Origin: Actinomycetes bacterium
GTDB lineage: Bacteria; Actinomycetota; Acidimicrobiia; Acidimicrobiales; Ilumatobacteraceae
Assembly (NCBI GenBank): GCA_025359865.1
Contig: JANYDH010000196.1
Coordinates: forward strand, 1-38,287
Length of the DNA: 38,287 bases
Direction: 5' to 3'
Every line of letters begins with the position of its first letter. The first letter of the stretch is position 1. The translations under genes and the position numbers were made by a program. The notes under the pieces are model-generated. The model ran no database searches. It was not told where the DNA came from and worked only from the letters and a program-made list of their open reading frames with translations. Positions 34,209 to 36,377 of this stretch are shown piece by piece.

Positions 34209-36377
34209 ATGCGCTTCGCTCTCGACGACCAGCCGGTCGACTACCTCGATGGCGACTCGATCGCTGTCGCGGTGGTCCGCGCCGGGCAACATCCTCAACA
34301 TGGCGGTGCGCTGTGCCTGGCCGGCGACTGCGGTAACTGCTCGGCCGATGTCGCCGGTGTGCCATTCACCCGAACCTGCCTCACGCCAGCCCGTCCCGGA
34401 TTGCGGGTACGCCGTCACCCGGCTGTCGGTGGGCCGCCGCTACGCCTCGACCCTCCGAAGAACCCCGTCGCGTCACCCGCCCAGACCAGTGTCCAAGTGC
34501 ATCGCCGCCATGTCGACATCGCGGTGATCGGTGCAGGCCGCTCGGGTACGGCCGCTGCCGCCTCGGCTCGGGCAGCCGGGCACGACGTGATGGTGCTCGA
34601 CTCCGAGTCGGGCTTCGAAGTGGTCGGTGTCTACCCCGGCCCGATCGTCGTCGTGCGCACCCCGGAGCACATGCTGCACGTCCATGCCCACGAAGTCGTC
34701 ATCGCCACCGGAGCGGCCGACGTGCACCCCGTGTGCGAAGGCAACATGTTGCGCGGCATCGTCACGTGGGGTGCTGCCGACATACTCCGTGAGCGCAGCG
34801 TCGACCTCGGTCGTACGGTCACAGTCGATCTCACCGAACTCGCCCGGTTCGATGGCATCGATGGTCAGGTGACCGCCGTGGTATTCACCGACGGCCGGTC
34901 GACGCCCTGCGACACAGCGATCGTCACCAGCGCGACGCGAGCACCCCGCGACCTCCTCGCCCGGATGGTGAGTGATCCGGGGGTCAGCGTGGTTGGCCCT
35001 GCGGCTGAGCGTTATGACCTGCCCCCGTGCCCTACCGATGGCATCGTCTGCCCCTGCTCCAAGGTCACAGTCGGCGATCTGCAGATGGTGTGGGACAAGG
35101 GGTTCACTCACCTCGAACTGGTCAAACGTGCCGCGTTGTGCGGGACGGGTACGTGCCAGGGCGGCGTCTGCATGCCACACCTGCGGGCCTTCGTGACCGA
35201 GAAGTCCGGTGCCCCGGCGGCACCGTTCACCGGACGGCCCGCCTCGCGTCAGCTCACCATTGCCGAAGCTGCCGCCGATGTGTTTCTCGACCCGTTCCGA
35301 CGCACCGCGCTCCATGACGAGCACCTCAAGCTAGGTGCCCAGATGGACCGCTTCGGCGGGTGGTGGCGGCCTTGGAACTACGGCGACTTCATGCGCGAAT
35401 ACTGGGCCGTGCGCGAGGGTGTCTCGTTGGGCGACGTCTCCACCCTCGGCAAGATGATCGTCTCCGGCCCCGACGTCGTCGAGGCGCTCGAACGCCTCTA
35501 CCCCACCACCATCGCCGACATTCGACCGGGGCGCAGCCGCTACGTCTTGCTGCTCAACGAGCGTGGTCATCTCATCGACGACGGCATGGTGTGCCGCGAG
35601 AGCGACGACCGATTCGTCCTCACCTTCACCTCGGGTGGCGCATCGTTCGCCGAGGCCTGGGTTCGAGACTGGATCGAAACGTGGGGCCTCAATGTGCGGA
35701 TCATGGACCGCACCATCTCTCTCGGGGCGATTAATGTCACCGGCCCGCTTGCCGGCGAATTGCTCCGTCGTGTCGGTGTACCCGAGTCCCCCAAGTTCCT
35801 CCAACACCGTCACGCCGACGTCGCCGGTGTCGCATGCCACATCATGCGCTTGTCGTTCACCGGTGAGGCCAGTTTCGAACTCCATCATCCGGTGGCTCAT
35901 TCGGCCGAGTTGTGGCAGACCCTGATGCTCGCCGGACGCGACCTCAACATCACTCCACATGGTCTGCAGGCGCTGTTTGCGCTCCGCTTAGAAAAAGGGC
36001 ACGTGATCGTGGGCATGGACACCGAACTCGACACCACACCCAGACGCATCAACATGGACTGGGCGGTCAAGATGGACAAGCCCGACTTCATCGGTCGCAC
36101 TGCGCTTGCTCGTACTGCCGACCTACCCGATCACCGGCGGTTGTTCGGCCTCACCATGGATGGGCCTGCGCCGACCGAGGGGGCGCCGATCTATGTCGGC
36201 GACCGCATCGTCGGCCATGTTGCATCGGCGTTCATGTCGCCGACGGTCGGCAAGGCGATCATGCTCGGCTGGCAGAAGCATTCGCCGTGGGTCGACACCG
36301 TCACGGTCGATGGCCGAACTGCCCATGTGACCGACACTCCCTTCTATGATCCGCAGGGTGCCCGTGCGCGCATCTGA
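34209..36377 (+). CDS. Sarcosine oxidase alpha subunit-like protein, compact form with BFD-type Fe-S site
   Basis: A 722-residue protein, against about 960-1000 for classical SoxA. Residues 1-75 form a [2Fe-2S] domain (C36, C41, C44, C57). A nucleotide-binding fold starts at IGAGRSG (G108, G110, G113), but only about 60 residues separate it from the second FAD motif VVIATGAADVHPV, and no second Rossmann GxGxxG is visible, so this part is much reduced. Next is a BFD-like site (C281, C283, C316, C321) in a CxC...CxxxxC pattern. From about 370 to the end lie the GcvT and GcvT C-terminal folate domains. ATG 34209 matches the domain start. First gene of a four-gene operon. Confidence 0.82.
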   Translation: MRFALDDQPVDYLDGDSIAVAVVRAGQHPQHGGALCLAGDCGNCSADVAGVPFTRTCLTPARPGLRVRRHPAVGGPPLRLDPPKNPVASPAQTSVQVHRRHVDIAVIGAGRSGTAAAASARAAGHDVMVLDSESGFEVVGVYPGPIVVVRTPEHMLHVHAHEVVIATGAADVHPVCEGNMLRGIVTWGAADILRERSVDLGRTVTVDLTELARFDGIDGQVTAVVFTDGRSTPCDTAIVTSATRAPRDLLARMVSDPGVSVVGPAAERYDLPPCPTDGIVCPCSKVTVGDLQMVWDKGFTHLELVKRAALCGTGTCQGGVCMPHLRAFVTEKSGAPAAPFTGRPASRQLTIAEAAADVFLDPFRRTALHDEHLKLGAQMDRFGGWWRPWNYGDFMREYWAVREGVSLGDVSTLGKMIVSGPDVVEALERLYPTTIADIRPGRSRYVLLLNERGHLIDDGMVCRESDDRFVLTFTSGGASFAEAWVRDWIETWGLNVRIMDRTISLGAINVTGPLAGELLRRVGVPESPKFLQHRHADVAGVACHIMRLSFTGEASFELHHPVAHSAELWQTLMLAGRDLNITPHGLQALFALRLEKGHVIVGMDTELDTTPRRINMDWAVKMDKPDFIGRTALARTADLPDHRRLFGLTMDGPAPTEGAPIYVGDRIVGHVASAFMSPTVGKAIMLGWQKHSPWVDTVTVDGRTAHVTDTPFYDPQGARARI

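What the first reader, a model, noticed from the sequence alone, without database searches (positions are those of the whole stretch)
34209..36377. Miniature SoxA with a second Fe-S site and reduced nucleotide-binding domain
It is about 250 residues shorter than classical SoxA. The dinucleotide-binding half is cut back, while a CxC...CxxxxC BFD-type [2Fe-2S] site is present between it and the folate domain, as in proline/amine dehydrogenase alpha subunits. With the N-terminal [2Fe-2S] site this gives two clusters. It suggests a dehydrogenase feeding an electron acceptor and not an oxygen-reducing oxidase.
Basis: partly seen in the sequence, partly recalled or inferred. Interest (0 to 1): 0.6.

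Follow-up and report, generated by a model that had tools for sequence, protein, structure and literature searches.

The report
Stripped-down iron-sulfur sarcosine-oxidase alpha subunit
This gene encodes a shortened version of the large subunit of an enzyme that strips methyl groups from sarcosine-like compounds; it has kept two sets of iron-sulfur ligands and lost much of its nucleotide-binding part, so it probably passes electrons on as a dehydrogenase, which has not been tested at the bench.

Summary
34209-36377 encodes a 722-aa SoxA-like subunit, about 242 aa shorter than TSOX alpha, with Fer2_4, a reduced Rossmann domain, a BFD-type site and a GcvT domain. It heads an A-G-B-D set whose four subunits were all identified (G by fold only). 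Of 46 distinct short relatives, 43 keep all eight cysteines; two others are cut by contig ends and one has a single Ser. The shortness is not an assembly error. Short forms make one clade (100/100).

Two corrections. The second Fe-S site is not specific to the short form: 16 of the 19 longer relatives aligned carry both sets, while the eight TSOX-type proteins in the tree lack both and form one clade. So the sites look ancestral, TSOX lost them, and this lineage lost much of the nucleotide module instead. And Fe-S content alone does not separate dehydrogenase from oxidase: a probable N-methylglutamate dehydrogenase alpha subunit has none.

Best reading: a folate-coupled, probably sarcosine-oxidising FAD/FMN/[2Fe-2S] dehydrogenase whose alpha subunit is an Fe-S wire. 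In 7 of 27 neighbourhoods a betaine-methyltransferase-like and a dimethylglycine-dehydrogenase-like gene lie upstream. New variant of a known kind; cofactors, acceptor and substrate are untested.

The parts
34209..36377 (+). short soxA-like alpha subunit, 722 aa
34314..34379 (+). N-terminal [2Fe-2S] ligands Cys36, 41, 44, 57 (C-X4-C-X2-C-X12-C) in the Fer2_4 domain
34506..35018 (+). reduced Rossmann domain (about residues 100-270): GxGxSG beta-alpha-beta and ATGA kept, parts of both lobes and of the segment before the BFD site missing
35043..35192 (+). BFD-type domain (residues 279-328) with Cys281, 283, 316, 321 and the invariant Lys306-Arg307
35310..36350 (+). GcvT folate-binding domain and its C-terminal barrel (residues 368-714)
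36346..36825 (+). soxG-like gamma subunit (start codon uncertain); no Pfam, NCBIfam or PDB sequence match, but its AlphaFold model fits TSOX gamma 2gag_C at Z 10.0 over 134 residues
36822..38030 (+). soxB-like beta subunit (DAO domain; His171 at 37332-37334 aligns with the TSOX FMN-linking His)
38030..38272 (+). soxD-like delta subunit with CxxC...HxxxC (zinc role recalled), at the contig end
24953..26548 (+). MTTB-family methyltransferase; closest solved chains a putative trimethylamine methyltransferase and a glycine betaine methyltransferase (context)
26585..29038 (+). single-chain DMGDH-like protein with DAO, FAO_M and GcvT domains (context)

Best explanation
The gene encodes the alpha subunit of a heterotetrameric, folate-coupled amine dehydrogenase that oxidises sarcosine or a close N-methyl amino acid. 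Proposed path: the substrate is oxidised at the FAD in SoxB; the electrons pass to an FMN covalently held by SoxB His171 at the A/B interface, next to the BFD domain of SoxA; from there one at a time through the BFD [2Fe-2S] cluster and the N-terminal [2Fe-2S] cluster to an outside carrier, ETF being my first guess. The methylene group is captured as methylene-THF by the GcvT domain. The lineage could shed much of the nucleotide module and a linker because the Fe-S pair, not a nucleotide, carries the electrons out. Shown here: gene, domains, conserved residues, four subunits, one clade, context. Inferred: cofactor occupancy, electron path, acceptor, substrate, and the reason for the shrinkage.
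For: Four subunits: A matches TSOX alpha (Z 47.3 and 46.7, 707 and 710 of 722 residues); B matches TSOX beta (1e-93), with the FMN His in 26 of 26 SoxB compared; G by fold (Z 10.0); D by sequence (4e-13), with CxxC...HxxxC in 11 of 11 relatives that run on to it. Eight Cys in 43 of 46 distinct short rows. Both motif types occur in opine dehydrogenase, which holds FAD, FMN and [2Fe-2S] and does not use oxygen or NAD(P)+ (PMC4575208, passages). Arg and Lys that would bind the substrate carboxylate (roles recalled from monomeric sarcosine oxidase): Arg in 26 of 26 SoxB, Lys in 25 of 26, the miss being a protein cut by its contig end. Context: MTTB-like plus DMGDH-like genes upstream in 7 of 27 short loci, DMGDH-like in 9 of 27 (in L124 the script missed soxA, whose place I took, and its two neighbours match at only 36% and 30%). 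A large subunit like that of an NAD formate dehydrogenase lies upstream in 3 of 27 (typed in L140 only), as expected if C1 units leave via folate. ETF genes exist in the genome.
Against: No cofactor, activity or acceptor was measured. BFD and Pyr_redox_2 scores of the window protein lie just under Pfam's cut-offs. In opine dehydrogenase iron analysis was read as one [2Fe-2S] cluster, in gamma, though the BFD-like motif in alpha is conserved: the BFD site here may likewise be empty. Fe-S content does not track the acceptor cleanly. No coordinates were available, so cluster-to-flavin distances were not measured.
Confidence: 0.55

Rival explanations
1. It is still an oxygen-reducing sarcosine oxidase: O2 reacts at the FMN as in TSOX, and the Fe-S clusters are structural, empty in part or of little use.
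For: SoxB is clearly TSOX-like and keeps the FMN His; fold and subunit set are shared with TSOX; the BFD motif of opine dehydrogenase was not counted as occupied by its authors; Acidimicrobiia are largely aerobic (recalled).
Against: Eight Cys are kept in 43 of 46 distinct short rows while much of the N-terminal half eroded; TSOX-type proteins lack them. Genome G086 carries both a short Fe-S form and a Cys-free TSOX-type SoxA, which suggests different jobs.
Confidence: 0.2
2. Same enzyme, but the physiological substrate is another N-methyl amino acid (for instance N-methylglutamate or dimethylglycine) or a larger amine, not sarcosine.
For: SoxBDAG-like operons are postulated to encode N-methylglutamate dehydrogenase in SAR11, after M. 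universalis (PMC3160333, passages); A. caldus has such a cluster. In most short loci the neighbours do not name the substrate.
Against: In 7 of 27 loci the upstream pair would deliver dimethylglycine and then sarcosine; an OpuAC betaine-binding protein lies near one more (L125).
Confidence: 0.3
3. The remaining beta-alpha-beta unit still binds an ADP-containing nucleotide (NAD+, FAD or ATP) that takes part in electron transfer or stability.
For: Both first glycines of GxGxxG are kept in all short rows that reach the motif, and the acidic end of strand 2 in nearly all; PDH1 alpha binds a nucleotide (recalled).
Against: Parts of both lobes and of the segment before the BFD site are missing.
Confidence: 0.3
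4. Assembly deletion or decaying gene.
For: Draft assembly; an IS66 fragment lies just upstream and the contig ends just after soxD.
Against: The same contraction occurs in one clade across many genera with intact frames; one of 46 distinct rows (L117) has an in-frame stop.
Confidence: 0.01

Closest known systems
Heterotetrameric sarcosine oxidase TSOX (SoxBDAG; PDB 2gag, 1vrq)
   Same: Same four subunits, SoxA fold with GcvT domain, SoxB with FMN-linking His, SoxD Cys/His set
   Different: Alpha about 242 aa shorter, eight Cys that TSOX-type proteins lack, nucleotide domain reduced, gene order A-G-B-D instead of B-D-A-G
Intermediate and long Fe-S SoxA-like proteins of other actinobacterial families (16 rows of A2, L044-L063)
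   Same: Both Cys sets, Fer2-Rossmann-BFD-GcvT order; those of family f53 are the sister clade
   Different: 823-927 aa, with a longer Fer2-Rossmann linker and more of the nucleotide domain
Dye-linked L-proline dehydrogenase PDH1 (PDB 1y56) and opine dehydrogenase OdhABC
   Same: Fer2-Rossmann-BFD layout, the same kinds of [2Fe-2S] motifs, FAD in beta and FMN between alpha and beta (opine dehydrogenase)
   Different: Alpha there has no GcvT folate domain and keeps a larger nucleotide domain
N-methylglutamate dehydrogenase (SoxBDAG-like)
   Same: SoxB, SoxD and SoxA with folate domain; a dehydrogenase by name
   Different: The A. caldus example has no Fe-S cysteines and a 971-aa alpha subunit
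DMGDH / SARDH single-chain enzymes
   Same: FAD oxidase-type domain working with a GcvT domain, ETF as acceptor in mammals (recalled)
   Different: One chain, no FMN, no Fe-S sites (recalled)

Membership tests
Heterotetrameric sarcosine oxidase (TSOX) | Alpha subunit with Fer2-like, Rossmann, A3/BFD-like and GcvT domains in TSOX fold | tested here: met
   Model vs 1vrq_A Z 47.3 (707 aligned, 5.1 A) and 2gag_A Z 46.7 (710 aligned, 5.0 A)
Heterotetrameric sarcosine oxidase (TSOX) | Curated NCBIfam cut-offs of soxA, soxB, soxD | tested here: not met
   290.2 of 1164, 398 of 529.45 and 60.4 of 116.5 bits
Heterotetrameric sarcosine oxidase (TSOX) | Full-size two-lobed nucleotide-binding domain in alpha | tested here: not met
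   Segment lengths. Pfam extent alone is not clean: Pyr_redox_2 spans 2-279 of 291 in L079 and 2-291 in L061, but only 2-114 in the full-length TSOX-type L035, and 2-39, 74-119 and 73-154 in the short window protein, L065 and L017
Heterotetrameric sarcosine oxidase (TSOX) | Beta subunit with the covalent FMN His (H173 in 2GAG, PMC9045290 passage) | tested here: met
   His171 aligned; 26 of 26 SoxB, (residue only; FMN not measured)
Heterotetrameric sarcosine oxidase (TSOX) | Gamma and delta subunits | tested here: met
   Gamma by fold only, Z 10.0, next family 7.7 (Foldseek gave no E under 0.001); delta E 4e-13
Heterotetrameric sarcosine oxidase (TSOX) | O2 as electron acceptor | not testable with these tools
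   needs purified complex
PDH1/OpnDH dye-linked dehydrogenases | Two Cys motifs, CX4CX2CX11-12C and CXC...CX4C | tested here: met
   CX4CX2CX12C and CXCX32CX4C; PMC4575208 prints X15-20 for the middle spacing, PDH1 itself has 31
PDH1/OpnDH dye-linked dehydrogenases | Alpha subunit without GcvT domain | tested here: not met
   GCV_T 225.7 bits
PDH1/OpnDH dye-linked dehydrogenases | Complete nucleotide-binding domain in alpha | tested here: not met
PDH1/OpnDH dye-linked dehydrogenases | Activity with dyes, not O2 | not testable with these tools
   needs purified complex
Fe-S SoxA-like group of Actinomycetota (named here) | Eight Cys plus GcvT, grouping in the tree | tested here: met
   33 of 36 rows of A2 keep eight Cys; short + f53 intermediate rows group at 100/100
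DMGDH/SARDH | FAD domain and GcvT domain in one chain | tested here: not met
   the DAO domain is in SoxB, a separate gene

The most novel reading that the evidence does not exclude
A folate-coupled sarcosine dehydrogenase whose alpha subunit has become a nucleotide-free wire: FMN to BFD [2Fe-2S] to N-terminal [2Fe-2S] to an outside carrier. With the tree, it would mean that two-site SoxA is the ancestral state shared with proline and opine dehydrogenases, and that the textbook oxygen-using TSOX is the derived form that lost its clusters.
Probability: 0.4. Interest if true: 0.55.

Novelty: new variant of a known kind. Interest (0 to 1): 0.4.

Why it matters
TSOX is a textbook flavin oxidase whose NAD+ site in the alpha subunit has no known role (recalled). 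A natural, conserved version that drops much of that module but keeps two Fe-S ligand sets gives a direct test of what the module is for, and of how an Fe-S dehydrogenase may have become an oxidase. It also points to a betaine-to-glycine route in some Acidimicrobiia that would save electrons for respiration instead of making peroxide.

Tried and rejected
Assembly deletion: rejected, the same contraction occurs in one clade over many genera. Second Fe-S site as a hallmark of the miniature: rejected, 16 of the 19 longer rows of A2 have it. Fe-S content as proof of dehydrogenase: not accepted, because of the Cys-free SoxA in the A. caldus glnT/glx cluster. Start at TTG 34188: set aside.

SoxG had no Pfam or NCBIfam hit and its profile no PDB hit to TSOX gamma; only VIA-align placed it, while Foldseek gave no E under 0.001. 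A SoxB change beside the FMN His (Arg in 13 of 13 short partners, Ala or Ser in 13 of 13 others; His in 1vrq_B) has no explanation yet. Literature: ten searches listed no title or abstract start on an Fe-S SoxA with a GcvT domain or on a short SoxA; the library holds open-licence papers only, lists were capped and most listed papers were not opened. Six papers were seen as found passages, the rest as listings; none was read whole; a B. thuringiensis sox locus has separate proteins, SoxC and SoxD, with a 2Fe-2S domain.

Rows dropped: from A2, L053 (both Cys sets present, but an in-frame TGA), L055 and L059 (incomplete frames; L059's BFD stretch has no Cys) and L064 (same gene as L021). From the tree, L057 (my cut motif did not fit); 28 of the 47 short rows went into it. 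L029 and L094 are identical, so one search's 47 rows are 46. In one search the ORF picker missed soxA in L124 and L131; both count among the 27 loci, which are my choice and not all loci found. In one search the BFD stretch of L080 and L084 was not shown; one search shows it without Cys.

Full report
What was checked. The window is the whole of contig C169 of a draft genome of 219 contigs. A family member by the tool's kinship (G018, whose gene is L012/L025) is named Ilumatobacteraceae in its record, a family of Acidimicrobiia, so the host very likely belongs there. The frame 34209-36377 is open from ATG to TGA and encodes 722 aa. Pfam finds Fer2_4, a Pyr_redox_2 match limited to the first 39 of 291 profile columns, Fer2_BFD just under its cut-off, and the two GcvT domains. 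Against PDB sequences the best matches are the two TSOX alpha sequences of 964-965 aa.

The cysteines. Two sets are read in the sequence: Cys36, 41, 44, 57 (C-X4-C-X2-C-X12-C) and Cys281, 283, 316, 321 (C-X-C-X32-C-X4-C). All eight are invariant in 15 of 15 rows of the short type. In a wider set, 44 of 47 rows have all eight, or 43 of 46 distinct ones; L104 and L122 are cut by contig ends with all visible Cys kept, and L123 has Ser for Cys41.

Spread. Of 100 genomes (own included), 15 have a match at E 1e-60; 14 of them carry the short form, and G083 has only a long SoxA. Further: 23 of 221 genomes of the family and 26 of 395 sampled genomes of the class, in seven families by the tool's labels, own included in each. 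A phylum sample gave 20 of 396 genomes; four carry short forms (own included), the others intermediate, long or partial ones. So this is a stable, patchily distributed family and not a broken gene.

What was lost. Segment lengths between shared landmarks, short rows against the 19 longer rows of A2: first Fer2 part 41-42 residues against 49; Fer2 to Rossmann 43-51 against 87-91; strand 2 to the ATG motif 34-41 against 47-74; second lobe 66-97 against 94-127; the segment before the BFD site 26-30 against 30-104. From the start of the folate domain on, 358-365 against 363-381 (one row, L054, ends early). So a linker of about 40 residues, the middle of the first lobe, part of the second lobe and the segment before the BFD site are missing, while the GxGxxG unit stays. 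Two intermediate rows (L045, L047) have a short segment before the BFD site as well. Pfam extents agree only in part: Pyr_redox_2 spans profile columns 2-247, 2-291 and 2-279 in L044, L061 and L079, but 2-114 in the full-length TSOX-type L035.

Fe-S sites are not new here. In alignment A2, 33 of 36 rows keep eight Cys: 17 short and 16 intermediate or long. L058 keeps three, and the TSOX-type L035 and L036 keep none. Six of six proteobacterial plasmid SoxA fetched have neither set. In a tree of 52 rows built on the BFD-GcvT part, short forms are one clade (100/100), sister to the intermediate forms of family f53 (joint support 100/100), and the eight Cys-free TSOX-type proteins are one clade (100/98). 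The root is a midpoint only. As PDH1 and opine dehydrogenase also bear the Cys motifs, the simplest reading is ancestral Fe-S sites, lost in TSOX, and a separate single contraction in Acidimicrobiia. This is inference.

Structure. AlphaFold2 gave a model of mean pLDDT 89.7 and pTM 0.58, with weak linkers at 78-92 and 358-362. VIA-align places it on TSOX alpha (Z 47.3, 707 aligned, 5.1 A; Z 46.7, 710 aligned, 5.0 A), and residues 1-358 on PDH1 alpha (Z 29.5, 331 aligned, 2.7 A). No coordinates were available to measure Cys geometry.

The other subunits. SoxB matches TSOX beta at 1e-93; its His171 aligns with the FMN-linking His (H173 in 2GAG according to PMC9045290, passage). That His is kept in 26 of 26 SoxB compared, as is an Arg that I take for the substrate-carboxylate Arg; the matching Lys is kept in 25 of 26, the last being cut (roles recalled). 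SoxG has no sequence match, but its model (pLDDT 84.7) fits TSOX gamma best (Z 10.0; next family 7.7). SoxD matches at 4e-13. Of 12 relatives read, 11 run on past soxA (L039 ends first); all 11 have B then D after A, and in 10 the gap between A and B shows a SoxG-like frame, L029 being unclear.

Neighbourhood. Upstream in the window lie an MTTB-family protein, whose closest solved chains are a putative trimethylamine methyltransferase and a glycine betaine methyltransferase, and a DMGDH-like protein; in the window two ABC exporter-like genes and an IS66 fragment stand between them and soxA. In 7 of 27 short loci both lie in the stretch upstream, in 9 of 27 a DMGDH-like gene does. In 3 of 27 a formate-dehydrogenase-like large subunit lies upstream, in two of them with its partner gene and directly before soxA (typed in L140 only). 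One further locus has an OpuAC betaine-binding protein. In an aerobic marine bacterium a corrinoid pathway with an MTTB-family MtgB is proposed to start betaine breakdown (PMC12478193, passages). This fits betaine to dimethylglycine to sarcosine to glycine, with C1 units leaving by folate. Other loci have other neighbours, so the substrate remains a proposal.

Oxidase or dehydrogenase. The best parallel is opine dehydrogenase: FAD, FMN and [2Fe-2S], the same motif types, active with dyes and cytochrome c but not with NAD(P)+ or oxygen (PMC4575208, passages). The same paper counts only one cluster per unit, in gamma, although both motifs are conserved; this speaks against taking the BFD site as occupied. 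Against a simple rule also stands the Cys-free SoxA in a glnT/glx cluster. One relative, G086, carries both the short form and a TSOX-type SoxA, which argues for different roles. In the own genome none of the other nine matches to this protein reaches the BFD part, so no long SoxA was seen; it has ETF genes on three contigs, one pair beside a gene with a GcvT domain. I put dehydrogenase with an outside carrier at about 0.7 taken alone, and the full mechanism at 0.55.

Verdict. Observation confirmed; interpretation partly supported; new variant of a known kind, of moderate interest.

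Noticed in passing
36430-36475 and 36712-36760: The soxG frame holds two simple repeats not seen in the SoxG frames of the relatives printed: an Ala-Gly-Ser run and an Asp-His run from GACCAC units.
   Followed up: partly
37332-37343 (SoxB residues 171-174): The residue after His-Asp beside the FMN His is Arg in 13 of 13 short-type SoxB and Ala or Ser in 13 of 13 others.
   Followed up: partly
32880-33545: IS66-type transposase fragment on the minus strand between two ABC exporter-like genes and soxA.
   Followed up: no
29120-32756: Pair of overlapping ABC exporter-like genes between DMGDH and soxA; a similar pair sits in the same place in L026 (ABC nature read from Walker motifs, no family search).
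   Followed up: no
L140 1887-7072: Formate dehydrogenase genes with fused subunits: the large chain carries an FdsD domain at its end, and the 2Fe-2S thioredoxin-like and 51-kDa-type subunits are one chain; directly upstream of short soxA. Similar frames in L132 (not typed).
   Followed up: partly
L058 (G307 C68): Long SoxA with three of the eight Cys left, as if in decay of its Fe-S sites.
   Followed up: no
L130 8453-9775: A DddP-like M24 protein (446 bits, cut-off 600) directly upstream of a short soxA.
   Followed up: no
G000 C174 1923-4311: ETF genes beside another GcvT-containing gene (874-aa frame) in the same genome.
   Followed up: no
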